Assembly: GCA_946886875.1 (NCBI GenBank)
Contig: CAMPJN010000004.1
Span: 1-29,533 of the forward strand
Reading direction: 5' to 3'
DNA length: 29,533 nt
Source: an uncultured Pseudomonas sp.
GTDB lineage: Bacteria; Pseudomonadota; Gammaproteobacteria; Pseudomonadales; Pseudomonadaceae
The stretch's first letter is position 1, and each line of letters starts with the position of its first letter. Below are positions 2,236 through 28,584 of the stretch, one piece after another. The notes beneath the pieces were generated by a model that worked only from the letters and a program-made list of their open reading frames with translations, was not told the origin of the DNA and made no database searches. Position numbers and translations under genes: made by a program.

Positions 2236-2265
2236 CTAGGTTCAATGATGAGCCAAGGATTATCA

Positions 2266-6127: not shown

Positions 6128-6709
6128 ATGAATGATTTTAGTTTTTGTGCTGTTAGCCGGAATATGCGTGGTCAACAGAAGAACCAGCGACCCATGTGTA
6201 TCTGGCTGACGGGATTGTCCGGTTCTGGAAAGTCCACGTTATCAACTCAACTCGAGCAGGCGCTCCATACGCGCGGATTGCACACAATGGTTCTGGATGG
6301 CGACATCATGCGCCAAGGCTTATGCCGCGATCTCGGTATGAGTGACTCGGATCGTAGTGAAAACATCAGGCGAGTGGCCGAGGTGGCCAAACTGATGGCC
6401 GAAGCGGGTTTGGTAGTGATAGTGGCGCTGATATCGCCGTTTCGTAAGGATCGTCAGGCAGCGCGTGAGCTGTTTGCCGAGGGGGAGTTTCTGGAAGTCT
6501 TCGTGGACGCCCCTCTGGAGACATGCTCGGCACGTGACCCCAAAGGACTGTATGCAAAAGTGAGAAGTGGACAGATCAAGAACTTTACCGGCGTCGATAG
6601 CCCTTACGAGGCCCCAGAACATCCGGATGTCCATATTCGCAGTGCCGAGAGCGACGTTGCCACCTGCGTTCAGTCGATTTTAGGTCGCATGGGCTTGGGC
6701 GATGTGTAG
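6128..6709 (+). CDS. cysC: Stand-alone adenylylsulfate (APS) kinase, CysC family
   Basis: This 193-residue P-loop kinase has Walker A GLSGSGKST (29-37), LDGDIMRQGLCRDLG, SENIRRVAEVAKLM, the ISPFRKDRQ segment, ARDPKGLYAKVRSG and NFTGVDSPYEAPEHPD, all characteristic of APS kinase. It phosphorylates adenylylsulfate to PAPS, the universal sulfate donor. In most APS kinases the first motif reads DGDN and the later one ISPhR; here these are DGDI and ISPFR, so substrate tuning may differ. No cysD/cysN sulfurylase genes are adjacent. It begins the large second cluster, 36 bases ahead of wecB. A sulfotransferase gene lies about 9 kb downstream in the same run, suggesting PAPS supply for glycan sulfation. 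Confidence 0.88.
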   Translation: MNDFSFCAVSRNMRGQQKNQRPMCIWLTGLSGSGKSTLSTQLEQALHTRGLHTMVLDGDIMRQGLCRDLGMSDSDRSENIRRVAEVAKLMAEAGLVVIVALISPFRKDRQAARELFAEGEFLEVFVDAPLETCSARDPKGLYAKVRSGQIKNFTGVDSPYEAPEHPDVHIRSAESDVATCVQSILGRMGLGDV

Positions 6710-6745
6710 TGATACGAGGTTGCGCGCGTTGTTGAACTGCTGGTC

Positions 6746-7891
6746 ATGAAGTTCAAGTGTCTGAGTATCTTCGGGACGCGACCGGAGGCGATCAAAATGG
6801 CACCTCTGGTGCGTGCCCTGCAGGCCTGTGCCTGGGTAGATGCGCGCGTTTGCGTCACGGCCCAGCACCGAGAAATGCTCGATCAAGTGCTGGATTGCTT
6901 CGATCTTGCAGCGGACTTCGATCTGGACGTCATGCTCCCCGGGCAGGATGCCAGCTCTGTCGCGAGTAGTGTCCTGCTGGAGCTGCGTAGTGTGTTGCGT
7001 GAATTCAAGCCGGATCTGGTGCTGGTTCATGGCGATACCGTTACCACGCTTGGCGCAGCCCTTGCCGCGTATTTCGAGCGCATTCCCGTTGCCCATGTAG
7101 AGGCGGGCTTGCGCACCGCGGATATCTATTCGCCCTGGCCGGAGGAGGGGATGCGCAGGATGGTGGGGCCGATTGCCGAATTGCATTTCGCGCCCACCGC
7201 GCGTGCTCGGCAGAACCTGCTCGACGAAGGTGTCGATCCTGACACGATACATGTCACGGGAAATACGGTGGTGGACGCTTTGCTGGGCTGTGTCGCGACG
7301 ATTCAGTCGGACGCGTTAGTGACCAAGCAACTGGCCGCAAGGTTCTCGTTTCTTTCTGCCGAGCGGCGTATTGTGCTCGTCACCGGGCATCGTCGGGAGA
7401 ACTTCGGCATGGCCATGGAGCGCATCTGCGCTGCGCTGCGACAGATTGCCGAAGCCTTTCCCGATGTGGATATCGTCTATCCGGTGCACCCCAACCCGAA
7501 TGTGCACGAGCCGGTCAATCGCCTGCTGGCGGGAACCGCGAATATCCACTTGATCGAGCCGCTGGATTATCGGGCTTTCGTTCATCTCATGGCGCGCACC
7601 TACCTGATTCTCACTGACTCTGGCGGTATTCAGGAAGAGGCACCCTCGCTGGGCAAGCCCGTTCTGGTCATGCGCGACACCACTGAGCGTCCCGAGGCCG
7701 TTGAGGCTGGCACAGTCAAACTAGTAGGCACAAGCGTTGCCAACCTGTTCGATGGGGTTCGTGAACTGCTGGAGGACGAAGCGATTTATCAGCGTATGAG
7801 CCAGGCGACCAATCCTTATGGCGACGGCAAGGCGAGCGAGCGAATCGTTCGCGTTTTAGAACAATGGGCCAAGGCTAAACAAGATGTTTAA
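6746..7891 (+). CDS. wecB: Non-hydrolysing UDP-GlcNAc 2-epimerase
   Basis: A 381-residue protein of normal length for WecB/WbpI/MnaA. It opens with KCLSIFGTRPEAIKMAPL and shows HGDTVTTLGAALA, HVEAGLRTADIYSPWPEE, VTGHRRENFG, PVHPNPNV and TDSGGIQEEAPSLGKPVL. These line the UDP-GlcNAc site of the non-hydrolysing 2-epimerase, which makes UDP-ManNAc in the cytoplasm. The gene overlaps the next gene, wecC, by 8 bases (7884-7891), so the pair should supply UDP-ManNAcA. A 2-epimerase acting on a modified UDP-sugar (as WbpI does) is an alternative, but the neighbour argues for the plain ManNAc route. Confidence 0.9.
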   Translation: MKFKCLSIFGTRPEAIKMAPLVRALQACAWVDARVCVTAQHREMLDQVLDCFDLAADFDLDVMLPGQDASSVASSVLLELRSVLREFKPDLVLVHGDTVTTLGAALAAYFERIPVAHVEAGLRTADIYSPWPEEGMRRMVGPIAELHFAPTARARQNLLDEGVDPDTIHVTGNTVVDALLGCVATIQSDALVTKQLAARFSFLSAERRIVLVTGHRRENFGMAMERICAALRQIAEAFPDVDIVYPVHPNPNVHEPVNRLLAGTANIHLIEPLDYRAFVHLMARTYLILTDSGGIQEEAPSLGKPVLVMRDTTERPEAVEAGTVKLVGTSVANLFDGVRELLEDEAIYQRMSQATNPYGDGKASERIVRVLEQWAKAKQDV

Positions 7892-9149
7892 TACGGTATC
7901 AGTGATTGGGCTTGGCTATATTGGTTTGCCGACAGCGGCAGTTTTCGCCTCGCGGAAAAAACGGGTAATTGGCGTCGACGTCAACGACGAAGCGGTGCAG
8001 ATCATCAACCGTGGATCGATCCATATTGTTGAGCCTGAACTCGACATGCTGGTTCATGCCGCGGTCAAGGAAGGCTACTTGCGCGCGACGACCTGCCCCG
8101 AGCCTGCCGATGCCTTCCTGATCGCGGTTCCAACGCCGTTCACGGAGGGCCACAAGCCTGATCTGACTTATATAGAACAGGCCTGCAAGTCGATTGCTCC
8201 TGTGCTAGCCAAGGGCAATCTGATCGTGCTCGAGTCGACTTCGCCGGTGGGTACTACCGAACGAGTCGCTGACTGGCTGGCGGCGCTACGCCCCGACCTG
8301 AGTTTTCCACAGCAGGAGGGAGAGGCCTCGGATATTCGGGTCGCCCACTGTCCGGAGCGCGTGCTGCCCGGCAAGGTGCTGCGCGAACTGGTGGAGAACG
8401 ACCGGGTCATCGGTGGTATGACCAAGGCCTGCTCGTACGCGGCCGAGCGCCTGTACCGGGCTTTCGTACAGGGCGAGTGCGTACTCACCGACGCGCGCAC
8501 GGCGGAAATGTGCAAGCTGGCGGAGAACAGCTTCCGTGACGTCAATATCGCTTTTGCCAACGAGCTGGCCGCCATCTGCGAAAGGCTGGGAATCAATACC
8601 TGGGAGCTGATCGCTCTGGCCAACCGCCATCCGCGCGTCAACATCCTTCAGCCCGGCCCAGGTGTTGGTGGACATTGCATCGCCATCGACCCCTGGTTCA
8701 TCGTCGATGCCGCCCCCGAACAGGCGCGCATCATCCGCCAGGCGCGTACGATCAATGACGAGCGTCCGTTACAGGTGGTGAGCAAGGTGGAGGAGGTTCT
8801 GGCGCAGTGGCAAGTCCAGCATGGCAAACGCCAGGCGAAAGTGGCGTTCCTCGGTCTGAGCTACAAGGCCAATATCGACGATGTGCGTTCCAGCCCGGCG
8901 CTGACTATCGTCAATGCGGTTGCGGCGAAGTATCCCGACGTGGTTCTCGCCGTCGAGCCGCATCTGGCGGCCGCACCAACCGAGCTGCATCCCAATGCGC
9001 AGTTCGTTGAACTGCAGGAGGCCCTGAAAAGGGCCGATATTCTCGTATTGCTGGTGGCCCACAAGGACTTCCAGTCGGTACAGCTAGGCAATAACGCCAA
9101 CCAGACGGTATTGGATACATGCGGTGCCTGGAAAGGTATTGCGATCTAA
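7884..9149 (+). CDS. wecC: UDP-N-acetyl-D-mannosamine dehydrogenase
   Basis: The 421-residue protein belongs to the UDP-glucose/GDP-mannose dehydrogenase family. Visible features are the N-terminal Rossmann motif VIGLGYIGLPTA, VPTPF, STSPVGTTE, NSFRDVNIAFANELA and the catalytic-cysteine motif GVGGHCIAIDPWF (Cys265). A C-terminal UDP-binding domain contains FLGLSYKANIDDVRSSP. It oxidises UDP-ManNAc twice at C6 with NAD+ to give UDP-ManNAcA. The start overlaps wecB, with AAGG about 9 bases upstream. Family members also oxidise other UDP-HexNAc sugars, but NSFRDVNIAFANEL and the wecB coupling favour ManNAc. Confidence 0.9.
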   Translation: MFNTVSVIGLGYIGLPTAAVFASRKKRVIGVDVNDEAVQIINRGSIHIVEPELDMLVHAAVKEGYLRATTCPEPADAFLIAVPTPFTEGHKPDLTYIEQACKSIAPVLAKGNLIVLESTSPVGTTERVADWLAALRPDLSFPQQEGEASDIRVAHCPERVLPGKVLRELVENDRVIGGMTKACSYAAERLYRAFVQGECVLTDARTAEMCKLAENSFRDVNIAFANELAAICERLGINTWELIALANRHPRVNILQPGPGVGGHCIAIDPWFIVDAAPEQARIIRQARTINDERPLQVVSKVEEVLAQWQVQHGKRQAKVAFLGLSYKANIDDVRSSPALTIVNAVAAKYPDVVLAVEPHLAAAPTELHPNAQFVELQEALKRADILVLLVAHKDFQSVQLGNNANQTVLDTCGAWKGIAI

Positions 9150-9189
9150 ACGAAGTAAGCCCCCGGCGAGCAAATCACAGGAAATTGAC

Positions 9190-10221
9190 ATGACGATGTT
9201 TTTCGAAGACAAGAAGGTGCTGGTCACCGGCGGTTGCGGCACTGTTGGCAAGGAACTGGTCAACCAGCTGGTGCACAAGTATGGCGTCAAGGAACTTGTC
9301 GTTCTGGATAACAACGAAAGCGAGTTGTTCTATCAGACCGAGGCCTATCAAAATCATCACAACGTACACTTCTACCTGTGCGACATCCGCGACGAAGGCG
9401 CACTGACCCGCAAGATGGAAGGCGTCGATATCGTCTTCCACACCGCGGCATTCAAACACGTGATCCTCTGCGAGCAAGTACCGCACGAGGCGGTGCAGAC
9501 CAATATCCTCGGTGTCGACAATATCGTTCGCGCGGCGGTCAATGCTGACGTTAGCAAGGTCATCTTTACCAGCTCCGACAAGGCGGTGAACCCAACCAAC
9601 GTGATGGGTACCTCCAAGCTGATGGGCGAGCGGCTTATCACCGCCGCCAACGTCGAGTTCAAGAAGTCTGGCTGTATCTTCGCTTCCACCCGTTTCGGCA
9701 ACGTGCTCGGCTCGCGAGGCTCGGTCATCCCGATCTTCCGCGAGCAACTGCGCAAGGGCGGCCCGCTGACCCTGACCCACAGCGAAATGACCCGCTTCAT
9801 TATGAGCGTCGAGGAATCCGTCCAACTGATCGTCGACTCCGCCATGCTGGCCAAGGGCGGCGAAGTATTTGTCACCAAGATGCCGGTCATCGCCATCAAG
9901 GATCTCGCCGAAGTGATGATCCGCAAGTTGGCCCCCGAATACGGTCAGGACCCGGCGAAGGTCGAGATCAAGGAAATCGGCGTCAAGCCTGGCGAGAAGC
10001 TCTACGAAGAGCTGATGACCGGCGAAGAAACTGGTCGCGCGCTGGAACTCGAACGTTACTTCGTCGTAAAGCCGGCGATCATGAAACGTTTCACCGATAT
10101 CGACTACAGCTACCAGGGCGTGATCTCCGAACAGGTGGAGAACCCCTATAACTCGGCGAACGAGCCCAAGTTGAGCCAGGACGAACTGGCAGTGTTCCTT
10201 GTCGAAAATAACCTGATCTGA
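9190..10221 (+). CDS. Short-form nucleotide-sugar 4,6-dehydratase (soluble WbpM/CapE-like SDR)
   Basis: A 343-residue soluble SDR resembling the C-terminal half of WbpM. It has VTGGCGTVGKEL (12-23), HTAAFKHV, SSDKAVNPTNVMGTSK (Ser129, Met139, Lys143, the S-M-K triad), RFGNVLGSRGSVIP and GVKPGEKLYEELM. Such proteins dehydrate UDP-GlcNAc, some with C5 epimerisation as in CapE/WbjB. The frame is open from 9124, but ATG 9190 is preferred because AGGA (9179-9182) stands 7 bases upstream. Codon use is far more C/G-ending than in neighbours to the right, and the same is true of the next gene, so the two may have travelled together. The exact product sugar cannot be read from sequence. Confidence 0.82.
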   Translation: MTMFFEDKKVLVTGGCGTVGKELVNQLVHKYGVKELVVLDNNESELFYQTEAYQNHHNVHFYLCDIRDEGALTRKMEGVDIVFHTAAFKHVILCEQVPHEAVQTNILGVDNIVRAAVNADVSKVIFTSSDKAVNPTNVMGTSKLMGERLITAANVEFKKSGCIFASTRFGNVLGSRGSVIPIFREQLRKGGPLTLTHSEMTRFIMSVEESVQLIVDSAMLAKGGEVFVTKMPVIAIKDLAEVMIRKLAPEYGQDPAKVEIKEIGVKPGEKLYEELMTGEETGRALELERYFVVKPAIMKRFTDIDYSYQGVISEQVENPYNSANEPKLSQDELAVFLVENNLI

Positions 10222-10238
10222 AGAAGATCGCAGCAACC

Positions 10239-10261
10239 GCCGGCGGGCAGCGCTCGCCGGC
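10239..10261. other. GC hairpin between dehydratase and SQD1-like genes
   Basis: GCCGGCG (10239-10245) and CGCCGGC (10255-10261) form a perfect 7-bp stem with a 9-base loop in the 58-base gap. There is no T-tract after it, so transcription termination is unlikely. An mRNA-processing or stabilising role is possible. The ribosome site AGGAG for the next gene follows just downstream. Confidence 0.35.
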
Positions 10262-10279
10262 AACTTTCAGGAGTGAAAC

Positions 10280-11464
10280 ATGCACGTATTGATTCTCGGT
10301 GGTGACGGTTATTTGGGTTGGCCCTCCGCCATGTACTTCTCGGCTCGTGGTTATCAAGTCACTGTGGTCGACAACTACCTGCGCCGTAACAACTGCCAGG
10401 ACCTGGATGTCGGCATGCTCTACCCGATCCCCACCCTGATGGAACGGGCCAAGATCTGGCACGAAAAGACCGGCTACGAAATCAAGGTGGTGATTGGCGA
10501 CCTGGCCGAGCCGCAGGTCATGCGCTCGCTGTTCGATGGCAGCGTCAAGTACAACTGGTGCGTCAACCCGGCATTCACCGGCATTCCGAAAACCGTCGTG
10601 CACTACGCCGAGCAGCCTTCCGCGCCGTACTCGCTGATCGACTACGCACACGCCGACAAGACCATCGTCAACAACCTGCGCGTGACCAACAACCTGATGT
10701 TCGCCGTGCGCGACTTCTCCCGTGATACCCACATCATCAAGCTGGGCACCATGGGCGAGTACGGCACCCCGAACATCGACATCGAAGAAGGCTGGCTCGA
10801 GATCGAGCACAAGGGCCGCAAGGGCAAGTTCCTGTTCCCGCGCGCCGCCGGTTCCATCTACCACACCACCAAGGTGATGGACACCGACCTGATGTGGTTC
10901 GGCGTGCGCATGTGGGATCTGCGCGTGACCGACCTGATGCAGGGCCCGGTCTACGGCATCGAAACCGACGAAGTCGCCATCGATCCGCGCCTGAATACCA
11001 TCTTCAACTACGACGAAGTGTTCGGCACCATCGTCAACCGCTTTATCGTCCAGGCCGTGGTCGACTACCCGCTGACCGTATACGGCAAAGGCGGCCAGAC
11101 CCGTGGCTACCTCAATATCAAGGACACCCTGCAGTGTGTGCACCAGTCCGAGAAGGCCCCGGCGGCCACGGGTGAGCTGCGTATCTTCAACCAGATCATG
11201 GAAACCTTCTCCGCCAACCAGCTGGCCGACATGGTGCAGCGTGTGGGCCAATCCCTGGGTTACGACGTCAAGGTCAACCACCTGGAGAACCCGCGCAAGG
11301 AAGCTGAAGAGCACTACTACAACCCGACCTACCAGGGCCTGATCGACCTGGGCGTGCAGCCGCACTACCTCACCGACGAGGTCATGGCCGGGATGTTCCA
11401 GGTAGTCGGTAAGTTCAAGGAAAACATCCGCAAGGATGTGATCTTCAAAGGCATCAAGTGGTAA
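10280..11464 (+). CDS. UDP-sulfoquinovose synthase-like protein (SQD1/SqdB family)
   Basis: A 394-residue SDR that follows the plant/cyanobacterial SQD1 pattern throughout: LGGDGYLGWPSAMY (6-19), EQPSAPYSLID, KLGTMGEYGTPNIDIEEG, SIYHTTKVMD, TDLMQGPVYG, YGKGGQTRGYLNIKDT, FNQIMETFS and NPRKEAEEHYYNP. Catalytic candidates Thr157, Tyr194 and Lys198 have the same spacing as Thr145, Tyr182 and Lys186 of Arabidopsis SQD1. That enzyme joins sulfite to UDP-glucose to give UDP-sulfoquinovose. Differences are an insertion of about 10 residues before the EQ-SAPY motif and Pro113 where SQD1 has Arg (EQRSAPY). No SqdX/SQD2-type lipid glycosyltransferase is present; the glycosyltransferases here suggest use in a glycan. 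A related but non-sulfonating reaction remains possible. AGGAG lies upstream of the ATG. Confidence 0.85.
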   Translation: MHVLILGGDGYLGWPSAMYFSARGYQVTVVDNYLRRNNCQDLDVGMLYPIPTLMERAKIWHEKTGYEIKVVIGDLAEPQVMRSLFDGSVKYNWCVNPAFTGIPKTVVHYAEQPSAPYSLIDYAHADKTIVNNLRVTNNLMFAVRDFSRDTHIIKLGTMGEYGTPNIDIEEGWLEIEHKGRKGKFLFPRAAGSIYHTTKVMDTDLMWFGVRMWDLRVTDLMQGPVYGIETDEVAIDPRLNTIFNYDEVFGTIVNRFIVQAVVDYPLTVYGKGGQTRGYLNIKDTLQCVHQSEKAPAATGELRIFNQIMETFSANQLADMVQRVGQSLGYDVKVNHLENPRKEAEEHYYNPTYQGLIDLGVQPHYLTDEVMAGMFQVVGKFKENIRKDVIFKGIKW

Positions 11465-11475
11465 ACAAGGAAAAT

Positions 11476-11494
11476 GCGCGGCCTTGAGCCGCGC
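11476..11494. other. GC hairpin downstream of SQD1-like gene
   Basis: GCGCGGC (11476-11482) pairs with GCCGCGC (11488-11494) around the loop CTTGA, a compact 7-bp stem 12 bases after the stop codon. It lacks a T-tract. It marks the sharp change from the GC-biased gene pair on the left to the AT-richer block on the right, and could be a mild terminator or a 3'-end stabiliser. Confidence 0.4.
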
Positions 11495-11514
11495 CAACTA
11501 ATAAGGCGAAGAAG

Positions 11515-13302
11515 ATGTCCGATGTTGTTGATCGTTATGGCGATCTCAACGATTCGTTGTTGAATCGAATTAAGTTCTACTGTCCGCCACGAAATGATGA
11601 GGTTATAGGCTCTGACGCTATTGGCGGTGAGCTTAATATTGGCGCTTTAGTAACGGGTAGGTTGAATGCTGCGCTTCGTTACGAATCGAATGTGCATCTT
11701 CTGACGCCAAGTAATTGGGAATTTGTTCTTGAGCAGTCCAAGCTTGATTTTATTTTGATTGAATCGTGTTTTGAGACCGTTACGCGCGACTGGTATATGG
11801 CTCAGTTGGCGCAAAATTATGCCAATTCTCAGTTGCGAGAGTTGCTAGAGTTTGCCAGGAATAATGAGGTTCCAACAGTCTACTGGTTTACCAAAGACAG
11901 CCAGTACCATAGTAATTACGCAGCCTTTGCGGCGCTGGTCGACTATGTTTACTGCGCTGACCCAGAAGAACTCGTATTGCTTGAGCAACAAGGTGTTTCA
12001 GCTAAGCTGCTGCTACCCGCCGTTCAGCCAAAGATATTCAACCCCTACAGGTCTGCTTGCTCTGATCAGGATGAGATTGGAGTGGTCTACGACGGTCTAA
12101 TCGATGTCATAAAATCTGCCGAAAAATTTGATTATCTCAGGCGCGCAGAAATTAGCTTGTGTGACTCTAATAATCTGTTGTTTGCAAGTAAGTTGAACTC
12201 CCTGTCAGTCGAGGGGTGGCGCGTACTTGGTAGTGTTGATTTTGCGCATAAGCCGGACCTGATTAAGTTCTCTAAAGGAGTTTTAAGCTCAAGCCAGTCT
12301 GTGATCGCCAAGACTGAGCAGCAATGGATGATGGTTGAGGCTGCGGCCTGTCGAGTACCGCTTTATCATGTGGGGGAAATTTCGAGCGACGATATCAGAG
12401 CGCAGCTCTGTTATTCGACTTCCTCGCTTGATGAGTTAGGGCTTAAGCTTGAACGCGATGCGGAGGATTACCTTTCCTGGCAGCGCCAGGCACATCTAGC
12501 TTGGCGCGAGGTCAATTCTCATCATACCTATGCTATGCGGTTGACTACGATCGCCCAAGACCTTGGCCTAGAACAAAAAAATGGACCGGATTTTATGGCG
12601 TCTGTGCTGGCGCCAACTTACAGGAAGGATTTCATCCCGCGAGTGTTGGAAACTTTCCGAGGGCAGCTGTACGAGAAGAAAGAACTGGTTATCGTCTATA
12701 ACGGCGATATGGCAGACCTGGCGGACCTGGATTTTGGCTTGGCTGCTAACGAGAAGATTGTTGCATTGCCTAGCGAGATGTCTGCCGGAGCATGTTTGAA
12801 TCTGGCATATCAATTGGCGGTTGGTACTCATACATTTCGTATGGATGATGATGACTACTATGGAGCATATTATCTATTTGATAGTATGTTGCATCTTAAT
12901 AGTGTTGAATGCGATATATATGGTAAGCCGCCAAAATTTGTGTATTTTGAAGAAGATCGACAGCTATATGCGCGAAACGTGCAGATGCAGGATTTGCAGG
13001 TTTTTCCCTCGGAGAAGTTAGGCGAGGACAACTTGTGGTTGGCTGGAAACACGATAGGGTTGAAAAAAAAATCTGGAAAGATGCCTAGATATCCGGATGC
13101 TAGTGTGGCTACTGCTGATACATTTTTGGCTTTGTCTGCGGCTGATTATGGTCTCAAGGTTATGTGTATGGATGTAATGAATATTGTGGTTAGCCGGCGT
13201 GCGGACTTGTCAAGCCATACTTGGGTTCTGGGGCATGACAAACTAAAGCGAGGGGCTGAGTTTGTTCGTGGCGGTATTTCTGATGTGCTGGGAAATATAT
13301 GA
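11515..13302 (+). CDS. Two-domain glycosyltransferase (CgeB-like N-terminal, GT2-like C-terminal)
   Basis: A 595-residue protein. Residues 1-350 look like the CgeB/DUF3880-type half seen in other bacterial glycan clusters: 'DFILIESCFE', 'VPTVYWFTKDS', a 'DYVYCADPEELVLLEQQG' stretch and 'EAAACRVPLYHVGE'. From about 359 a compact GT2-like domain begins (MASVLAPTYRKDFIPRVLETF) with an acidic metal-binding run MDDDDYYG (Asp444-Asp447). It likely adds a sugar to the lipid-linked chain in the cytoplasm; donor and linkage are unknown. Codon use is AT-richer than in the two preceding genes. An A9 run near 13063 (the KKKSGK segment) is a possible slippage site. The stop overlaps the next start as ATGA. 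Confidence 0.72.
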   Translation: MSDVVDRYGDLNDSLLNRIKFYCPPRNDEVIGSDAIGGELNIGALVTGRLNAALRYESNVHLLTPSNWEFVLEQSKLDFILIESCFETVTRDWYMAQLAQNYANSQLRELLEFARNNEVPTVYWFTKDSQYHSNYAAFAALVDYVYCADPEELVLLEQQGVSAKLLLPAVQPKIFNPYRSACSDQDEIGVVYDGLIDVIKSAEKFDYLRRAEISLCDSNNLLFASKLNSLSVEGWRVLGSVDFAHKPDLIKFSKGVLSSSQSVIAKTEQQWMMVEAAACRVPLYHVGEISSDDIRAQLCYSTSSLDELGLKLERDAEDYLSWQRQAHLAWREVNSHHTYAMRLTTIAQDLGLEQKNGPDFMASVLAPTYRKDFIPRVLETFRGQLYEKKELVIVYNGDMADLADLDFGLAANEKIVALPSEMSAGACLNLAYQLAVGTHTFRMDDDDYYGAYYLFDSMLHLNSVECDIYGKPPKFVYFEEDRQLYARNVQMQDLQVFPSEKLGEDNLWLAGNTIGLKKKSGKMPRYPDASVATADTFLALSAADYGLKVMCMDVMNIVVSRRADLSSHTWVLGHDKLKRGAEFVRGGISDVLGNI

Positions 13303-14399
13303 GAATCGCCTATATTACTCGTACGACATACGGCGTTCTTGGTGGGGGGGCCAGTTATTTTTTTCCTGAGAAAATTTCTCAATTTGCCGAAGTTATGGTT
13401 ATTGCACCTACGCCAAAAAAAAGCAATGAGAAAGTAATAATGCCAGTTGGTCGAGTACGGGTTTGTTCAGTGCCATCCGGGCAAGGGGAAGACGCGCTAT
13501 ATCAAGTGTATCGTTTGCTTGCGGACTTTAGGCCCGATGTTGTGCATGTTTTTCACTCCCCTAGTTGTCTTTTTTATGTGCAAAGATTGAAAAGCTTGTT
13601 GCCTACTGCTAAGTGGGTGTTGGATTTCAGGTCTCCACCTATAATCCCTGCTTGGCGCGATAGAATCAGAGTTAGGTTTAAATACTTTGCATGTCAGATG
13701 CTGTATGACCAAATTTTTACGCATTCACATCGGACGATCGGCCAGAATCTACCTCTGCGTATCAGACGTGTTAGGGAGGTTTGTCCTGGGGTGGAGTTGG
13801 CTTCAATAGGTGGTCGAGGTGAGAGCTGTAATAGTAGCCCAGAAAAATTTGTGTATGTTGGCAGTGTTACTGCATCCAGGCAATTGGATGTTTTAGTGGA
13901 TGCTTTTATTGCATGGTCGCGACAGTTACAAAAGCCGGTGCGTTTGGATATATATGGGGCGGGTAACGCATTGGATGAATTGCGCACACGAGTCAGCCAG
14001 GCTGGAGGCGAGGGTTGCGTTGTGTTTCATGGCGCAATTGATCAACAAAGCCTGCTCGAGAAACTACCTGGCTACGATGTAGGAGTGGCCTATGTCCCCG
14101 ATGACTTGTTTGCCAAGGCCCCCTCACTAAAGTCTCTGGAATATGCTGCCGCGGGCATTAGGATTTTGGCGTCAGATACTGTGGGGCATCGAGATTATTC
14201 GAAGAGATTTGGTTTTCAGTTTGCTTTTTTTTGCAACGATATTCGATCAATTGTCGCCGCGTTAGACCGTATTTGCTGCGAGTTCAAATCACTTTCCGAT
14301 CCTGCTGTGAACCTGCAATGTGTTGAGCGCTTTGATTGGTCTAATATTGTGCGTGACCAGTTGCTCCCCGCCTACAAGGAAATGATTAAACATGACTAA
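13299..14399 (+). CDS. GT4-family glycosyltransferase
   Basis: A 366-residue GT-B protein. It has an N-terminal glycine loop GVLGGGASYF (12-21), 'DVVHVFHSPSCLFY', a C-terminal Rossmann half beginning FVYVGSVTASRQLDVLVDAF, and the donor-site signature APSLKSLEYAAAGIRILASD. These are typical of group 1 (GT4) retaining glycosyltransferases of O-antigen clusters. It overlaps the upstream gene by 4 bases and the downstream epimerase gene by 8 bases (14392-14399). Codon use is AT-rich for a pseudomonad, indicating acquired DNA. The donor sugar is unknown. A G7 run lies at 13344-13350, inside the glycine loop codons. Confidence 0.82.
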   Translation: MRIAYITRTTYGVLGGGASYFFPEKISQFAEVMVIAPTPKKSNEKVIMPVGRVRVCSVPSGQGEDALYQVYRLLADFRPDVVHVFHSPSCLFYVQRLKSLLPTAKWVLDFRSPPIIPAWRDRIRVRFKYFACQMLYDQIFTHSHRTIGQNLPLRIRRVREVCPGVELASIGGRGESCNSSPEKFVYVGSVTASRQLDVLVDAFIAWSRQLQKPVRLDIYGAGNALDELRTRVSQAGGEGCVVFHGAIDQQSLLEKLPGYDVGVAYVPDDLFAKAPSLKSLEYAAAGIRILASDTVGHRDYSKRFGFQFAFFCNDIRSIVAALDRICCEFKSLSDPAVNLQCVERFDWSNIVRDQLLPAYKEMIKHD

Positions 14400-15366
14400 T
14401 GCAGTTTTGATTACTGGAGGGGCCGGGTTTATTGGGCGTTCTCTTATTTCCAAGCTCATTGAATTGAACCCTGATTTGCATATTCGAGTTCTCGACAATT
14501 TTTCGGTCGGCTCTCCTGAGGATTTGCAAGATGTATGCTCAGTACAGGATTGGATGGGTGGCATTGCTGCGGGCGTCCATATCGTCAGAGGGGATATTCG
14601 GGACTTTGCTTGTGTTCAAGCTGCTACCGAAGGAGTGAATTGCATTGTCCATCTGGCGGCAAACACAGGCGTTGGCCCTTCGGTCGAAGAACCGCGCTTC
14701 GATATGGAGAGTAATGTCATTGGGACTCTGAATATGCTTGAAGCTGCCAGGCATTCAGGCGTCAAAAAATTTGTCTTCGCTTCTTCCGGGGCTCCGGCGG
14801 GTGCAGTGGAGCCTCCGATTCACGAAGAGATCGCTCCGCATCCGGTGTCACCTTATGGGGCCAGCAAGCTTGCCGGTGAAGGATATTGTTCAGCTTATTA
14901 CCACAGTTTTGGTATCAATACGGTCGCCTTGCGCTTTGGTAATGTGTACGGCCCTAATTCGGCGAAAAAGAGCAGTGTTGTTGCAAAGTTTATTCGGCAG
15001 GCAATAAATAATGAAACCTGCGAAATTTATGGCAGCGGCGGTCAGACGCGAGACTATATCTATATCGAGGACTTAATCTCCGCGATTGTCTGCGCTATGC
15101 AGCAGCCTGTAGGTGGCGAGGTCTTTCAGATTGCTGTCGGAGCCGAGGTGACTTTGTTGGAGTTGGTGGAAAAGATCAGAGCTTCGCTCATCCGGCACTG
15201 CATAGAAATGCGCGTGACCAATACGGGGGCGCGTATAGGCGATGTATTGCGCAATTATGCTGATATTCGCAAGGCTAGGGAGGTGCTGGGCTGGGAACCG
15301 CAATTCGATTTGCAGCACGGTCTCGATAAAACAGTCGAATATTTCGTTAATCGTTCGCTGAGTTGA
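14392..15366 (+). CDS. NAD-dependent nucleotide-sugar epimerase (GalE/Gne-like extended SDR)
   Basis: A 324-residue extended SDR with TGGAGFIG (8-15), HLAANTGVGPSVEEP, YGASK (Tyr155, Lys159), RFGNVYGP, YGSGGQTRDYIYIEDL and a C-terminal LGWEPQF. This is the usual layout of UDP-hexose/UDP-HexNAc 4-epimerases. The active-site strand reads SSGAPAG (131-137) where GalE enzymes have SSSxVYG. This variant is seen in a subgroup of polysaccharide-cluster epimerases and makes the exact substrate uncertain. It probably interconverts a Glc/Gal-type UDP-sugar for the cluster's glycosyltransferases. It overlaps the GT4 gene by 8 bases, and the sulfotransferase gene starts 4 bases after its stop. Confidence 0.82.
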   Translation: MTNAVLITGGAGFIGRSLISKLIELNPDLHIRVLDNFSVGSPEDLQDVCSVQDWMGGIAAGVHIVRGDIRDFACVQAATEGVNCIVHLAANTGVGPSVEEPRFDMESNVIGTLNMLEAARHSGVKKFVFASSGAPAGAVEPPIHEEIAPHPVSPYGASKLAGEGYCSAYYHSFGINTVALRFGNVYGPNSAKKSSVVAKFIRQAINNETCEIYGSGGQTRDYIYIEDLISAIVCAMQQPVGGEVFQIAVGAEVTLLELVEKIRASLIRHCIEMRVTNTGARIGDVLRNYADIRKAREVLGWEPQFDLQHGLDKTVEYFVNRSLS

Positions 15367-15370
15367 TTAT

Positions 15371-16735
15371 ATGCAAAGCCGTCCAGTAATAGTTTTGGGG
15401 CCCGGTCGGTCCGGAACCTCGATGTTGATGAGCATTCTGGAAGAAATGGGAGTGTCTACCGTTCCCGGTGCGAGGACCATTACTGGTGATCAGAATCCCG
15501 AAGGGGATTATGAAGATCGCGAGTTAGTAGCCGTCAATCGCGAAATCCTAAAAAAGATAGGTGGGCATCCCTATTTACCTGTTCCAGATGGTTTCCTTGA
15601 TATGTTCAATTCGAGGAGGTACATAGGGAATATTCGGGAAGTTGTTTCGGCGCGCCTGGCAGGCGCCGATCGATGGGCATTCAAGGACCCTTTGACTGCC
15701 TCGCTGATGCCTCTTTGGGTGCGCGTTTTCAATACGGGAAAACTTGCGCCTATTTATTTGCTCGCCGTGCGGGATCCTGCCGCAGTGGTAGTTTCAATGA
15801 ATCGTCAATATGACGATTCACTTATTCTGGCCGAATTGGTGTGGTTGATAAGGGTCTGCGACGCTCTGTTCCATACTGGCGGCAACTGTATGATTGTCCA
15901 CTATGAAGATTTTTTTTCTGATAAGGCAGCTCCTTTGTGTCGGGAGCTGCAGAATTACATATATCCAGAAGGGCAGTTGGTTGGCTCTGATTTTGCTTCG
16001 ACGACAAAGGTAAAGCCCGCTCTCAATCGTTCTGCCTATAGTGAGTATCAAATTCAGAATCCATTGGTGCGGAAACTGTATCTTGAGCTTTCCAAGTGCA
16101 GGGGGGGGGATTTTGATCGGGGCGCGCTGATGAATGTGGTGCTCGAATGCCGATCAGCTATGCATCAGTTTGGTGGCTGGGCAGAGCTGGCATTGACTTT
16201 CTATAAAAAAAGTAATGCGTTGCGGGCAAAAACAGACACAGAGGGCAGGAGAGAGCCGCAGGCTGCGACTGATGTGCGCTTAACGAGCGCCCTGGAGCAG
16301 GCGCTGGCAGAAAATGCAGATTTTCTGCAAAAACAGATAACCCTTGAGGAGCAGTTGCGAACTTTACGTATAGAATTTTCTGAACGAGAGAAGTCGATTG
16401 TCGAGCTTCGCAAGTCCCTTCAGGGTGAGAGGAAGCGAAGTGACGACTTGGTTAAAGAGAACTCCGGGTTACGTGTTGAATCCCTGCGGCTGGCGAAAGT
16501 CGAAGCGCAGAGTTCAAAATTGTCCAGAGCGATCTCGGATGTTCGCCAGCGCCTTCAGGCTCAGCGTAAGAAAAATGATCAATTGAGTCGGAGGCTATTC
16601 GCTCTTAAGTCATCCACTTCTTATCAGCTTTCTCTTCTGTGCGTTAAGGCTATACGTCAGCCTGGAAAGAATACTGTCATGTTGCCGTTCAGGGTTTTGA
16701 GTTTGGTTGTGGCTGTTTTGGCGGGGCGCAAGTAA
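15371..16735 (+). CDS. PAPS-dependent sulfotransferase-family protein with C-terminal coiled coil
   Basis: A 454-residue protein. The N-terminus has the sulfotransferase 5'-phosphosulfate loop LGPGRSGTSML (9-19), WAFKDPLTASL (102-112) and a 3'-phosphate motif VRDPAAVVVSM (Arg134, Ser142), so it should bind PAPS. Residues about 302-412 are highly charged heptad-like sequence predicted by eye to form a long coiled coil. The last 40 residues (SSTSYQLSLL to the end) are hydrophobic/basic and may associate with membrane or partners. The protein is longer than ordinary sulfotransferases of this family (about 280-330). A G8 tract (16101-16108) falls in codons 244-246, just before the coiled-coil part. 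The next gene starts directly after the stop. An APS kinase gene in the same cluster supports sulfate transfer. Confidence 0.8.
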   Translation: MQSRPVIVLGPGRSGTSMLMSILEEMGVSTVPGARTITGDQNPEGDYEDRELVAVNREILKKIGGHPYLPVPDGFLDMFNSRRYIGNIREVVSARLAGADRWAFKDPLTASLMPLWVRVFNTGKLAPIYLLAVRDPAAVVVSMNRQYDDSLILAELVWLIRVCDALFHTGGNCMIVHYEDFFSDKAAPLCRELQNYIYPEGQLVGSDFASTTKVKPALNRSAYSEYQIQNPLVRKLYLELSKCRGGDFDRGALMNVVLECRSAMHQFGGWAELALTFYKKSNALRAKTDTEGRREPQAATDVRLTSALEQALAENADFLQKQITLEEQLRTLRIEFSEREKSIVELRKSLQGERKRSDDLVKENSGLRVESLRLAKVEAQSSKLSRAISDVRQRLQAQRKKNDQLSRRLFALKSSTSYQLSLLCVKAIRQPGKNTVMLPFRVLSLVVAVLAGRK

Positions 16736-19075
16736 ATGACTGCTTTGGTTAATGCGGGCATAAAAGTTACAGTGGTGGTTCCGCTCTACAATACCGCGGA
16801 TTATATCGCCGAGTGTCTCGATTCGGTACTGGCGCAGACGTTGAAGGGCGTCGAGGTTATCGTCGTCGACGATGGCTCTACGGATGGTGGCGACAAACTG
16901 GTTGAGCAATATTGCGCGCGATATCCGCAGGTCAAGCTGCTGCGTCAGGAGCGTAAGCGGCAGGGTGCAGCAAGGAATCTGGCACTGGCCCATGCCAATG
17001 GCGAATATGTTTCTTTTCTGGATTCCGACGACACTATTCCTGTCGATGCCTACGAGAAGATGGTGGCAGTCGCCAAGCAATATGGAAGCGACATGGTCTG
17101 CGGCATTCAGCAGTCTTTTAGTCAATGGCGCAAATGGATTGGAGTTCCTGTCCATCAGCGTGAGTTCAATCGACTGATCGAATGCACCACCATTGAAGAG
17201 ATGCCGACGCTGATGCAGGACATCAGTGCCTGCAATCGCCTGATCCGTCGGGAAAGCATTGAGAAACACGCAATGCGTTTCCCTGAGGGTACGGCTGGCG
17301 AAGACTTGGATTTCATGGCCAGGATGTATCTGAAGTGCGACGTGATCACCATCTTGCCCGAGGTGGTTTACAACTATCGCGGGCGTGATGATTCGCGTAC
17401 CAGTCGAATCTCTCCGCAGTTCTTCGAGGATCGCGTAGCGGTCACCGAAAGCCTTGAGTCGGCTTTTACCGAGAAAGGCGCGCTGGATATCTACCAGCGC
17501 TTGCTGCGTTCCGAAGTCAGGAAGCTGGTAGGCAATCGCTTCTTGAAAGTGATCAAGCAGTCTGCATACGACGAGCAACTGCAGATATTTGGCATCATCG
17601 GTCGCCTGGTGAAAAAATTGTCACCGGAAGATATGCGCTCCGCGGAAGACTATGCACTGCGTGAGCAAGTGCGCATCATCATGCTCAGCGCTCAGGAGTA
17701 CGACGCGCTGGTGGCCTATGAAAACGCCCCGCGCTCACCGCGTTACTTGACCCTGCTCAAGTCCGATGCCGCCAAGGCGCAGCTTTTCGAGCCCATGATG
17801 CGTATGCAGTTCCAGGGCCTGGCCCGTTTCGAGCGGGTACAGAAAATCCAGAGCTCCCGGGTATTTGCCGTGGCCTCGCGTATCAGCCTGTTGGCGGCGA
17901 AGTGCGTGAAGCTGGCGTCGACGGTCAAGGGCTTGCCGATGCTCAAGTACTTCGCGGCGGCGCCGGTGGCCAAGCTGGCCGGGGCGTTGCAGCCGAACAA
18001 GGCCATCTGGCTGATGGACGAGCGGATTGCCAGCAGTGCCGAGGACAACGGCTACTTCTTGTTCAAGTTCCTGCGCGAAACCTACCCGCAACTGCCGGTG
18101 TTCTACGTGCTCAAGCGCAATTCGCCGCACTGGGGCATCGTGGCGCCGCTGGGCAATGTGGTGGCGCAGTACTCCTGGAAGCACGCCTATCTGCTGTGGC
18201 GCGCGCGGGTGATGCTGTCCACCGACAGTTTCCGTGGCCTGGACTATCCGAGCGAGTCACTGCCTGGCCTACGCCGCAAAACCCTGAACATCTTTTTGCA
18301 GCATGGCGTAGCCGGTAACAAGACCATGACCTATACCCGCGAGAACTATCCCTACTTCTCGCAGGTGATCGTTTCCAACGGCATCGAACAGGCGTTTTTC
18401 AGTGGCCATTATGGCTTTACGCCAAAGCAAGTGAAGCTCACCGGCATCGCCCGGCTGGATGCCCTGGAGCCTCGGCGCGGCGCCGAGCGTTCCCGCAAGA
18501 TTCTGGTGGCGCCCACTTGGCGGCGCTGGCTCAAGGGGCAGGAGCAGATTCAGGCCAGCCGTTACTACCATGCCTGGAACAGCTTCCTCACCAGCGCGCG
18601 TCTGGCCGAACTGCTAGAACGGCACCAGATGGAGCTGTATTTCCGCCCGCATTTCAACATGATGCATTTCATCGACGAGTTCGAGAAAGGTTCGCCGCGG
18701 GTTCATGTGATCCGCGATCTCGACCAGCCGCTGCATCATCTGATCCGCGAGGCGGATTTGCTGATCACCGATTATTCCAGCGTGATGTACGACTTCTTCT
18801 ACCAGGAGAAGCCGGTGCTGGGCTACATGTTCGATCGCCATGAGTGGGAGGTGCAGCCACCGGGGCCGCCGCACCTGGACTACGAGCGCGATCTGGCTCT
18901 GGAGCTGGTTACCACCGAGGGTGCCTTGTTGCAGCAGTTGCAGCAGTGTCTGGAGGGCGGTTGCGAGATGCCTGCCGACAAGCTCGGTCGTTTAGACAAG
19001 TTGTTCAGCCACCGCGATGACGGCAACTGCGAGCGCATTTACCGGGCCGTGGTCGAGGATCTGGCTCTGCTATGA
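16736..19075 (+). CDS. Bifunctional GT2 glycosyltransferase / CDP-glycerol glycerophosphotransferase (TagF-like)
   Basis: A 779-residue fusion. Residues about 9-330 form a GT2/GT-A domain with VTVVVPLYNTADYIAECLDS, IVVDDGSTDG and the metal motif FLDSDD (Asp96, Asp98, Asp99). Residues about 420-775 match the Glyphos_transf family (TagF/TagB): KAIWLMDER at 422, FLQHGVAG (His523), RPHFNMMHF and the signature TDYSSVMYDF (678-687). Such C-terminal domains transfer glycerol- or ribitol-phosphate units from CDP-alditols. No CDP-glycerol-forming (TagD-like) gene lies in the window, so the donor must come from elsewhere or differ. GC content rises noticeably from about 17700, in the second half, suggesting a mosaic origin. 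Likely a chain-building enzyme at the inner membrane. Confidence 0.85.
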   Translation: MTALVNAGIKVTVVVPLYNTADYIAECLDSVLAQTLKGVEVIVVDDGSTDGGDKLVEQYCARYPQVKLLRQERKRQGAARNLALAHANGEYVSFLDSDDTIPVDAYEKMVAVAKQYGSDMVCGIQQSFSQWRKWIGVPVHQREFNRLIECTTIEEMPTLMQDISACNRLIRRESIEKHAMRFPEGTAGEDLDFMARMYLKCDVITILPEVVYNYRGRDDSRTSRISPQFFEDRVAVTESLESAFTEKGALDIYQRLLRSEVRKLVGNRFLKVIKQSAYDEQLQIFGIIGRLVKKLSPEDMRSAEDYALREQVRIIMLSAQEYDALVAYENAPRSPRYLTLLKSDAAKAQLFEPMMRMQFQGLARFERVQKIQSSRVFAVASRISLLAAKCVKLASTVKGLPMLKYFAAAPVAKLAGALQPNKAIWLMDERIASSAEDNGYFLFKFLRETYPQLPVFYVLKRNSPHWGIVAPLGNVVAQYSWKHAYLLWRARVMLSTDSFRGLDYPSESLPGLRRKTLNIFLQHGVAGNKTMTYTRENYPYFSQVIVSNGIEQAFFSGHYGFTPKQVKLTGIARLDALEPRRGAERSRKILVAPTWRRWLKGQEQIQASRYYHAWNSFLTSARLAELLERHQMELYFRPHFNMMHFIDEFEKGSPRVHVIRDLDQPLHHLIREADLLITDYSSVMYDFFYQEKPVLGYMFDRHEWEVQPPGPPHLDYERDLALELVTTEGALLQQLQQCLEGGCEMPADKLGRLDKLFSHRDDGNCERIYRAVVEDLALL

Positions 19076-19106
19076 ACAATACACTGGAAAAGGGTACGGG
19101 CCGCTG

Positions 19107-19892
19107 ATGCTGCAACTGCTCAAGGATCTGCAGCACTACCACCATGCCCTGATAACGCTGTTCTCGGTCAACGTGAAGACCACTGTATCCTCGACCCGAC
19201 TGGGCTGGCTGTGGTGGTTTCTCGACCCGTTGATCATGATGGCGATCTACTACTTCATCATCCGCGTGGTGTTTCAGCGCGGGGGCGAGAACTACCACCT
19301 GTTCGTGCTGTGCGGCATCGTTGCCTGGCAGTTCTTCGCCCGCTCTTTGAGCGCTGCGGTCACGGCGATCAGTAAGAACCGCGGCATCATCCGCCAGACC
19401 AGCACGCCGATGGGCCTGTTGATCGCGGTGCCCTGCGCGGTGCAGCTGTTTTTCGCCTCGGTGGGCATGCTGATCGTCATGTGCTGGTCCTATACGACCC
19501 TCGGCGTGCAATCGCTGGCGGTGCTGCCGCTGCTGTTGCTGGTGTTCTTTATCGCCTATGCGGTCAGCCTGTTCGTGGCGGTGACCCAGGTGTTCTTCGC
19601 GGATACCGCGAAGCTGGTGGCGTATGGCATCCGTGCGGGGTTCTTCCTCAGCCCGGTGCTGTACCCCACTTCACGGGTGCTGGATGCGGATAACATTCCC
19701 GCCTTTGCCAAGCTGCTGTTCGAGCTCAACCCCATGGGCTGGATCATCGAGGCGTTTCGCCGGGTGATTCTCGACGGGGGAATGTTCGACTGGCTGCAGT
19801 ACGGCGTGCAGTTGGCGCTGACGCTGCTGCTGGTGCAGGTGGGGCTGCTGTATCTGCGGCTGTGCAGCAATCGAATTGTGAAGATGCTCTAG
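19107..19892 (+). CDS. wzm: O-antigen/polysaccharide ABC transporter permease
   Basis: A 261-residue ABC-2 type membrane protein with a cytoplasmic N-terminus, six hydrophobic segments, and the family hallmark TRLGWLWWFLDPL followed by VFQRGGENYHLFVLCGIVAW and a C-terminal NPMGWIIEAFRRVILDG. It forms the membrane channel that flips lipid-linked polysaccharide across the inner membrane. The frame is open from 19017 inside the previous gene, but ATG 19107 gives the standard family N-terminus (LLKDLQHYHHALITLF). The ATPase partner starts 8 bases after its stop. No wzx/wzy genes are seen, so export by the ABC route is likely for this cluster. Confidence 0.9.
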   Translation: MLQLLKDLQHYHHALITLFSVNVKTTVSSTRLGWLWWFLDPLIMMAIYYFIIRVVFQRGGENYHLFVLCGIVAWQFFARSLSAAVTAISKNRGIIRQTSTPMGLLIAVPCAVQLFFASVGMLIVMCWSYTTLGVQSLAVLPLLLLVFFIAYAVSLFVAVTQVFFADTAKLVAYGIRAGFFLSPVLYPTSRVLDADNIPAFAKLLFELNPMGWIIEAFRRVILDGGMFDWLQYGVQLALTLLLVQVGLLYLRLCSNRIVKML

Positions 19893-19900
19893 GGGTTTAT

Positions 19901-28530: not shown

Positions 28531-28584
28531 ATAGCTTGCCGATCATTGGATGCTGAGCTCCCGTTTTTCACTGGAGTTCATCCC

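What the first reader, a model, noticed from the sequence alone, without database searches (positions are those of the whole stretch)
6128..16735. Three sulfur-related genes in one glycan cluster: APS kinase, SQD1-like enzyme, sulfotransferase
A stand-alone CysC-type kinase (6128-6709), an SQD1-like gene (10280-11464) and a PAPS-type sulfotransferase (15371-16735) sit in the same run of genes. APS kinase makes PAPS and the sulfotransferase motifs bind PAPS, giving an internally consistent sulfation route. The SQD1-like gene would be a second, sulfite-based route. A dedicated PAPS supply within an O-antigen cluster points to a sulfated, and possibly also sulfonated, glycan.
Basis: partly seen in the sequence, partly recalled or inferred. 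Interest (0 to 1): 0.85.

Follow-up and report, generated by a model that had tools for sequence, protein, structure and literature searches.

The report
Sulfated glycan cluster with unusual SQD1-like cassette
A Pseudomonas-like gene cluster for a cell-surface sugar polymer carries its own sulfate-donor kinase and a sulfotransferase, and its third 'sulfur' gene belongs to a distinct branch of the plant sulfolipid enzyme that usually sits beside a sugar dehydratase and probably helps build a different, as yet unidentified (perhaps sulfonated) sugar.

Summary
The kinase passes the APS-kinase cut-off. The sulfotransferase is sub-threshold in Pfam, but its model matches PAPS sulfotransferases best. 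APS kinase plus sulfotransferase in ABC-exported glycan clusters recurs in Pseudomonas and has published precedents: this half is ordinary.

The third gene is probably not an ordinary UDP-sulfoquinovose synthase. Arg101, whose alanine mutant is inactive in Agl3, is Pro here and in the anchor gene of 80 similarity-chosen loci; plant, cyanobacterial and rhizobial-type relatives keep Arg. A CapE/Pen-like dehydratase lies beside 14 of 20 fresh Pro-type genes and, at comparable score, 0 of 39 Arg-type genes. In 298 Pseudomonadaceae both occur in the same 4 genomes. Some Pro-type loci carry a sulfite-making reductase, so sulfite chemistry stays possible. Outside pseudomonads and a few others, APS kinase is not a general neighbour (0 of 17 fresh loci).

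Best reading: a sulfated glycan, plus a cassette making a C6-sulfonated sugar, perhaps an amino sugar. Substrate and product are unproven.

The parts
239..1210 (+). SDR (sugar epimerase/reductase), likely partner of the WbpM-like dehydratase
   Evidence: PF01370 E 1.3e-30; role inferred
1090..2235 (+). WecA/WbpL-type polyprenyl-phosphate glycosyl-1-phosphate transferase
   Evidence: PF00953 E 4.8e-37; subtype inferred
2245..4254 (+). WbpM/PglF-type UDP-GlcNAc 4,6-dehydratase with N-terminal extension
   Evidence: PF02719 E 2.7e-125 plus CoA_binding_3
6128..6709 (+). stand-alone APS kinase (CysC): makes PAPS
   Evidence: PF01583 E 7.1e-67; TIGR00455 249.1 bits vs cut-off 138.7; GLSGSGKS, DGD, SPFR, KGLY present
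6746..7891 (+). WecB, UDP-GlcNAc 2-epimerase
   Evidence: TIGR00236 501.7 bits vs cut-off 210.15
7884..9149 (+). WecC, UDP-ManNAc dehydrogenase
   Evidence: NF008286 683.8 bits vs cut-off 459
9124..10221 (+). CapE/Pen-like UDP-GlcNAc dehydratase, partner of the SQD1-like gene
   Evidence: PF02719 E 3.1e-95; closest solved sequence 6BWC (Pen, a UDP-GlcNAc 5,6-dehydratase) 278.6 bits, S. aureus CapE 205.1; motif SDKxnMx3K
10280..11464 (+). SQD1-like enzyme, Pro-101 branch
   Evidence: 1qrr SQD1 E 6.7e-112; NF041015 414.9 vs 575; residue 101 Pro
11515..13302 (+). 595-aa protein without Pfam or NCBIfam match; C-terminal part faintly GT2-like, probable glycosyltransferase
   Evidence: no family; 6p61 glycosyltransferase E 0.0048; model of low confidence, pLDDT 54.4
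13299..14399 (+). GT4-like glycosyltransferase
   Evidence: PF00534 E 3.2e-9
14392..15366 (+). SDR2, GalE/WbpP-like epimerase, third member of the cassette in many relatives
   Evidence: PF01370 E 1.6e-58; relative of at least 42% identity in 38 of 80 loci
15371..16735 (+). PAPS-dependent sulfotransferase with C-terminal long helix (coiled coil likely)
   Evidence: PF13469 22.2 bits, sub-threshold; model pLDDT 80.3; Foldseek hits; LGPGRSGTS loop in this protein, Arg134 and Ser142 invariant in the alignment of 18
16736..19075 (+). GT2 fused to TagF-like glycerophosphotransferase domain
   Evidence: PF00535 E 1.9e-39, PF04464 E 9.1e-34
19017..19892 (+). Wzm-like ABC-2 permease
   Evidence: PF01061 E 1.5e-9; NF050109 50.7 bits, below cut-off 380
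19862..21778 (+). Wzt-like ABC ATPase with a long N-terminal extension
   Evidence: PF00005 at residues 421-551; NF050108 186.1 bits, below cut-off 400

Best explanation
The window is the biosynthesis cluster of an ABC-transporter-exported surface polysaccharide of a Pseudomonas-like bacterium. APS kinase makes PAPS and the sulfotransferase moves sulfate from PAPS onto a hydroxyl of the chain (inferred from family and fold, not shown). Separately, the CapE/Pen-like dehydratase (9124-10221) and the SQD1-like enzyme (10280-11464) act in one pathway, with the epimerase SDR2 (14392-15366) as a frequent third step. Most likely the dehydratase opens UDP-GlcNAc at C5/C6 and the SQD1-like enzyme adds sulfite at C6, giving a UDP-activated C6-sulfonated 2-acetamido sugar rather than UDP-sulfoquinovose. 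The glycan would then be sulfated and sulfonated. Shown here: gene identities, the Arg/Pro split and the dehydratase linkage; the sulfotransferase fold is a prediction. Inferred: sulfite as nucleophile, UDP-GlcNAc as substrate, the product.
For: APS kinase above curated cut-off; sulfotransferase model. PAPS supply kept while its place or form changes: kinase between beta-CASP gene and WecB in L001 and L002, at the other end of the cluster in L228, and (inferred from length and order) CysD+CysNC in L003. Dehydratase-SQD1 pairing: 72 of 80 loci hold the partner, 59 within 700 bp upstream on the same strand; 14 of 20 fresh Pro-type loci against 0 of 39 fresh Arg-type loci at comparable score, one Arg-type locus (L249) having a weak WbpM-like neighbour (Fisher 2.9e-9, or 3.8e-8 with that one counted); in 298 Pseudomonadaceae both genes occur in the same 4 genomes. 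Fixed in the 85 Pro-type rows at least 55% identical to the window: Pro at 101, Thr at 184, Met at 208, against Arg, Met/Leu and His/Asn in 57 Arg-type rows; the window keeps His96, Thr145, Met146, Glu148, Tyr149, Ser180, Tyr182, His183 and Lys186. Sulfite source: (P)APS reductase with ECG[IL]H motif beside or near the cassette in L058, L080, L268, L322, L323, L326 and L329, and beside viral Pro-type genes in L109 and L128 (L129 matches like L128, motif not printed); fresh loci 4 of 17 Pro-type against 0 of 20 Arg-type (Fisher 0.036). Closest solved relative of the dehydratase is Pen, which makes UDP-GlcNAc-5,6-ene.
Against: No reductase in this window. In L001-L080 only 2 loci have one, not above a rough chance estimate (0.63 expected on an assumed gene density, P 0.13); L322 and L323 score only 62 and 69 bits on my profile, L326 has it about 8 kb away, and an older set of 12 Arg-type loci has one too (L194). 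The dehydratase has Met where Pen has Tyr, as in the 4,6-dehydratases WbpM and PglF, so its product may be the 4-keto-6-deoxy sugar, which has no C6 leaving group. Pro-type relatives in viruses and six distant bacterial loci lack the dehydratase nearby. The EAEEHYYN segment is shared with Arabidopsis SQD1, which may argue for the same hexose. APS kinase is absent from all 17 fresh Pro-type loci and present in 2 of 20 Arg-type loci; sulfotransferase matches there are few and weak in both sets (3 of 17 and 2 of 20). L229 has no APS kinase in its 19.9 kb.
Confidence: 0.4

Rival explanations
1. The SQD1-like gene is an ordinary UDP-sulfoquinovose synthase on UDP-glucose, the sulfoquinovose goes into the glycan, and the neighbouring dehydratase makes an unrelated deoxyamino sugar for the same polymer.
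For: About 46% identity to Arabidopsis SQD1 over the aligned length, catalytic residues kept; sources name several listed relatives UDP-sulfoquinovose synthase; EAEEHYYN segment shared with SQD1. Missing the 575-bit cut-off says little: no match in the 15 genomes reached it, Arg-type copies (about 332 bits) and an Okeania copy (444) included.
Against: Arg101, needed in Agl3, is Pro. The tight pairing with the dehydratase is unexplained, and fresh Arg-type genes do not show it at comparable score.
Confidence: 0.25
2. The Pro branch has lost sulfite use. It is a dehydratase, epimerase or reductase that completes a non-sulfur deoxyamino sugar together with the CapE/Pen-like enzyme and SDR2; the only sulfur on the glycan is the sulfate ester.
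For: Loss of Arg101, essential in Agl3; SQD1-type enzymes act as 5,6-dehydratases without sulfite; tight pairing with a UDP-GlcNAc dehydratase; most Pro-type loci have no reductase in the DNA held.
Against: Several Pro-type loci have a reductase with an intact ECG[IL]H motif right beside the cassette, which a non-sulfur pathway would not need.
Confidence: 0.27
3. The kinase supplies PAPS mainly for reduction to sulfite, not for sulfation, and the sulfotransferase-like protein is inactive or has another role.
For: Kinase or (inferred) CysD/CysNC genes lie directly beside the cassette in L019, L041 and L062; L041 and L062 have no sulfotransferase match and L019 only matches about 9 kb away.
Against: No reductase in the window; sulfotransferase matches lie within about 4 kb of the Pro-type gene in all four Pseudomonadaceae that carry it, at 31 to 88% identity, so the function is kept while the sequence turns over.
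Confidence: 0.08

Closest known systems
Sulfated capsule clusters of Vibrio sp. KMM 8419 and Cobetia marina KMM 1449 (PMC11641403, PMC11766843; passages read)
   Same: PAPS-synthesis genes, sulfotransferase(s), glycosyltransferases and an ABC exporter in one cluster; Cobetia also links sulfate with glycerol phosphate, as the TagF domain here might.
   Different: Those have CysN/CysD with CysC; here a lone APS kinase. No SQD1-like gene was mentioned in the passages read. Kps-type export there, Wzm/Wzt-like with WbpL/WbpM-like genes here.
UDP-sulfoquinovose synthases SQD1 (Arabidopsis), Agl3 (Sulfolobus, for a sulfoquinovose-bearing N-glycan; PMC4388408, passages read), SqdB
   Same: Same family and catalytic residues (TMG, YHxxK); Agl3 shows that a sulfonated sugar can go into a glycan.
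   Different: Arg101 replaced by Pro, 208 by Met, 184 by Thr; usually paired with a CapE/Pen-like dehydratase.
Pen, UDP-GlcNAc 5,6-dehydratase of Bacillus thuringiensis (6BWC), and CapE of S. aureus
   Same: Closest solved relatives of the partner dehydratase (278.6 and 205.1 bits); SDK acid/base residues kept.
   Different: Met instead of Tyr relative to Pen; its neighbour is SQD1-like, whereas Pen works with Pal (title cited).

Membership tests
APS kinase (CysC) | Score above the curated family cut-off | tested here: met
   TIGR00455 249.1 bits vs 138.7
APS kinase (CysC) | P-loop and APS-binding motifs | tested here: met
   GLSGSGKS, DGD, SPFR, KGLY present; meaning of the motifs recalled
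PAPS-dependent sulfotransferase | Score above the Pfam gathering cut-off | tested here: not met
   PF13469 22.2 vs 27; some of the 26 homologues carry PF13469 in precomputed annotation
PAPS-dependent sulfotransferase | Sulfotransferase fold | tested here: met
   predicted model, pLDDT 80.3; the 8 PDB matches at E <= 0.001 are all sulfotransferases, TM-scores modest
PAPS-dependent sulfotransferase | 5'-phosphosulfate loop and 3'-phosphate Arg/Ser | tested here: met
   LGPGRSGTS in the window protein; Arg134 and Ser142 invariant in 18 aligned sequences, several of which start after the loop; meaning of the motifs recalled
PAPS-dependent sulfotransferase | Activity with PAPS on a glycan | not testable with these tools
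   needs an assay
UDP-sulfoquinovose synthase (NF041015) | Score above the curated cut-off | tested here: not met
   414.9 vs 575; a strict cut-off: 0 of 15 genomes with relatives pass it, Arg-type copies included, and 1 of 14 control genomes does
UDP-sulfoquinovose synthase (NF041015) | Catalytic Thr, Tyr, Lys | tested here: met
   Thr145, Tyr182, Lys186 equivalents present; the Thr mutant of Agl3 stayed active
UDP-sulfoquinovose synthase (NF041015) | Arg101, needed for activity in Agl3 | tested here: not met
   Pro at this position
UDP-sulfoquinovose synthase (NF041015) | Use of sulfite | tested here: inconclusive
   no reductase in the window; reductase at some relatives
UDP-GlcNAc 5,6-dehydratase (Pen) | Motif [ST]DKxnYx3K | tested here: not met
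   SDK present but Met in place of Tyr
ABC-transporter-dependent O-polysaccharide cluster | Wzm/Wzt exporter with WbpL/WbpM-type initiation genes | tested here: inconclusive
   all gene classes present, but Wzm and Wzt are below the NCBIfam cut-offs and O-antigen versus capsule is undecided

The most novel reading that the evidence does not exclude
A widespread, so far unnamed nucleotide-sugar cassette: a Pen/CapE-like dehydratase makes UDP-GlcNAc-5,6-ene and a Pro-101 SQD1-like enzyme oxidises C4 and adds sulfite at C6, giving UDP-N-acetyl-6-sulfo-quinovosamine, with SDR2 epimerising it. By record titles it occurs in several phyla. In this cluster the glycan would be both sulfonated and sulfated.
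Probability: 0.25. Interest if true: 0.8.

Novelty: new variant of a known kind. Interest (0 to 1): 0.55.

Why it matters
If right, many database entries called 'UDP-sulfoquinovose synthase' or plain epimerase near bacterial glycan genes need another function (7,999 related sequences were scored and 120 listed; how many are Pro-type was not counted), and sulfonated amino sugars may be common outside photosynthetic lipids. It gives a direct test: two purified enzymes, UDP-GlcNAc and sulfite. The sulfation half adds a case to the published rule that PAPS genes plus a sulfotransferase mark sulfated polysaccharides.

Tried and rejected
Rejected: a Cj1415-like diphosphoramidate kinase (recalled) for 6128-6709, because the APS-kinase cut-offs TIGR00455 and PRK03846 are passed and PRK05541 is not (116.2 vs 127). 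My first idea, that Pro-101 simply means loss of sulfite use, was weakened by the reductase neighbours and is kept as a rival. Led nowhere: E. coli genomes held no DNA match to the SQD1-like gene, so no known O-antigen structure could be borrowed; phage records had no match at E 1e-5; plasmids had 23 records, all below 60% identity. The 595-aa protein gave a low-confidence model and was not fold-searched. NeuB genes in some loci were not followed.

Literature: 'sulfoquinovosamine' gave 0 papers. The listings (capped at 20 where more papers held the terms) showed no title or abstract start about a sulfonated O-antigen or an SQD1/CapE cassette; one search lists a sulfonated flagellin glycan of Clostridium difficile (PMC5207245, listing only). 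The library is partial, so this is not proof of absence. The SQD1 structure paper and the Pen/Pal paper were not held.

Counts to read with care: L001-L080 are the best 80 of 444 relatives in a capped scan chosen by similarity to the Pro-type, so their Pro state is largely by design; one search is the fresher test. Fresh Pro-type: L253-L255, L269-L274, L298, L300-L309 (20). Fresh Arg-type: L249-L252, L275-L297, L310-L321 (39). Left out as repeats: L248 and L256 (seen before), L161-L166, L178, L179, L195-L197, and L299, which one search showed to be the same DNA as L049; its larger form L328 was dropped from the 18 loci L322-L339 for the same reason. One search had tested earlier counts that still held L299 (15/18 vs 0/35) and L328 (4/18). 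Several of the fresh loci are shorter than 20 kb. The kinase count of 9 of 17 replaces a '10' in my notebook, and one search's probability for it was computed for 10, so it is not used. Those 17 loci were picked by me from the match list, out of 30 genomes with a sulfotransferase match and no Pro-type gene. The 57 Arg-type rows include three loci twice (L191, L192, L194). Tree rows were thinned (one in three viral).
Full report
Anatomy. The window is a co-directed glycan cluster: SDR, WbpL-like and WbpM-like initiation genes, a beta-CASP metallohydrolase, APS kinase, WecB, WecC, a CapE/Pen-like dehydratase, an SQD1-like gene, a 595-aa unknown, GT4, epimerase SDR2, sulfotransferase, GT2-TagF, Wzm, Wzt, more glycosyltransferases, an AT3-SGNH acyltransferase, an SDR, and IS66 genes at the right end. 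No whole genome is held. The closest SQD1-like relatives among named genomes are in Pseudomonas sp. AOB-7 (99% identical), P. mendocina PSB00032 (98%) and Halomonas sp. M20 (89%), so the host is Pseudomonas-like (inference).

The sulfation half. The kinase scores 249.1 bits against a cut-off of 138.7. The sulfotransferase is below the Pfam gathering score (22.2 against 27). It has 26 homologues at E <= 1e-3 among 7,992 candidates scored. Its model (pLDDT 80.3) has 8 PDB matches at E <= 0.001, all sulfotransferases, with modest TM-scores. In 298 Pseudomonadaceae genomes 34 have a match to it at E <= 1e-5. Of 17 such loci without a Pro-type SQD1-like gene, picked from 30 genomes, 9 have an APS kinase match and 13 a Wzm or Wzt match within about 20 kb. 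Published sulfated capsules show the same gene logic; [quoted passage not shown] This half is a new member of a known kind.

The SQD1-like gene. Against the curated UDP-sulfoquinovose synthase model it scores 414.9, cut-off 575; but no match in 15 genomes with relatives passes that cut-off, Arg-type copies (about 332 bits) and an Okeania copy (444) included, so this alone decides little. In the mutational study of Agl3 (passages read) alanine at His95, Arg101, Met145, Tyr182 or Lys186 gave inactive enzyme, while the Thr mutant stayed active. The window keeps these residues except Arg101, which is Pro; so does the anchor gene of each of 80 similarity-chosen loci (one of them, L079, has a second, Arg-type copy). 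Arg is kept in Arabidopsis SQD1, an Okeania copy 73% identical to it, rhizobial and rhodobacterial SqdB-like genes, a Pseudonocardia copy, and a Pelagovum copy beside an annotated phosphoadenylyl-sulfate reductase; a Haladaptatus copy has Pro. On a tree of 114 sequences the Arg/Pro state needs two changes by parsimony. Of 80 viral contigs 77 are Pro-type. Positions 101, 184 and 208 are fixed differently in the 85 Pro-type rows at least 55% identical to the window; that they line the sugar pocket is inferred from their place next to catalytic motifs.

The partner. In the 80 loci 72 hold a CapE/Pen-like gene, 59 of them within 700 bp upstream on the same strand; of the 8 without, 6 are loci shorter than 12 kb and 2 (L064, L079) are over 21 kb. 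SDR2 (at least 42% identity) is in 38, sulfotransferase matches in 11, APS kinase in 7; an iterated profile found strong sulfotransferase matches (E below 1e-30) in 15 of the 80. In fresh loci from three genome samples, 14 of 20 Pro-type but 0 of 39 Arg-type loci have a partner at comparable score (431-600 bits) within about 1.5 kb; one Arg-type locus, L249, has a WbpM-like neighbour at 175 bits (279 in the longer L257), and another Arg-type locus, L266, has one at 263 bits some 9 kb away. The six Pro-type misses are 45 to 55% identical to the window gene. In the same 298 Pseudomonadaceae the partner (92-98% identity) occurs in exactly the 4 genomes that carry the Pro-type gene; the other 35 matches are at most 42% identical. 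None of the 80 viral loci has a gene in the partner's cluster within 6 kb. The partner's closest solved relative is 6BWC, which a review identifies as Pen, a UDP-GlcNAc 5,6-dehydratase (passages read), but the catalytic Tyr is Met, as in WbpM and PglF.

Sulfite. A reductase with the ECG[IL]H motif lies beside or near the cassette in L058, L080, L268, L322, L323, L326 (about 8 kb away) and L329, and beside viral Pro-type genes in L109 and L128; L129 matches like L128 (L322 and L323 score only 62 and 69 bits on my profile; meaning of the motif recalled). Fresh loci of up to 20 kb: 4 of 17 Pro-type, 0 of 20 Arg-type (Fisher 0.036); an older Arg-type set has 1 of 12, L194. In L001-L080 the count, 2, is not above a rough chance estimate. 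Probable CysD and CysNC genes precede the SQD1-like gene in L062 and lie upstream in L003 (naming inferred from length and order). So sulfite use is possible to likely, not shown.

How general is the trio? In Pseudomonadaceae the Pro-type gene is rare (4 of 298) but always has a sulfotransferase match within about 4 kb, and 3 of the 4 have an APS kinase in the DNA held. In the 17 fresh Pro-type loci of other groups APS kinase is absent and sulfotransferase matches are 3 and weak (28-40 bits); in the 20 Arg-type loci they are 2 and 2 (53-58 bits). So sulfation genes and the SQD1-like cassette are separate modules that meet in this cluster type.

Mechanism. SQD1-type enzymes pass through a 5,6-ene and make UDP-Glc-5,6-ene without sulfite. 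A Pen-like partner would hand over UDP-GlcNAc-5,6-ene, to which the SQD1-like enzyme could add sulfite after C4 oxidation. This explains both the pairing and the changed residues, but the Met in the partner and the shared EAEEHYYN segment speak against it. Hence confidence 0.40 for the combined reading and 0.25 for the full novel case.

Verdict. Sulfation is well supported by genes and precedent. The SQD1-like gene is not filed as a UDP-sulfoquinovose synthase, because Arg101 is missing and the curated cut-off is not met (the latter weak evidence); it may still work like one on another sugar.

Noticed in passing
window 4596-6053: A beta-CASP metallohydrolase (277 bits to a type VII Cas14 model, cut-off 800) sits between the WbpM-like gene and the APS kinase; relatives keep it in L001, L002 and L228.
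   Followed up: no
window 19862-21778: The Wzt ATPase domain begins only at residue 421; about 400 residues without a Pfam match precede it.
   Followed up: no
window 11515-13302: 595-aa protein without Pfam or NCBIfam match directly behind the SQD1-like gene; relatives at 28-90% identity in similar loci.
   Followed up: partly
window 16736-19075: GT2 fused to a TagF-like domain suggests glycerol phosphate on the glycan, as in the sulfated Cobetia capsule.
   Followed up: no
L081-L160: Viral contigs encode mostly Pro-type SQD1-like proteins, some beside a CysH-like reductase, others near a dCMP deaminase or DNA methylase; possible sugar or base modification by phages.
   Followed up: partly
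L316 and L317: Two Arg-type SQD1 genes have an SDR2-like epimerase directly beside them (323 and 310 bits), so SDR2 is not exclusive to the Pro-type cassette.
   Followed up: no
window 28546-29532: IS66 TnpB and TnpC genes at the right end of the window.
   Followed up: no
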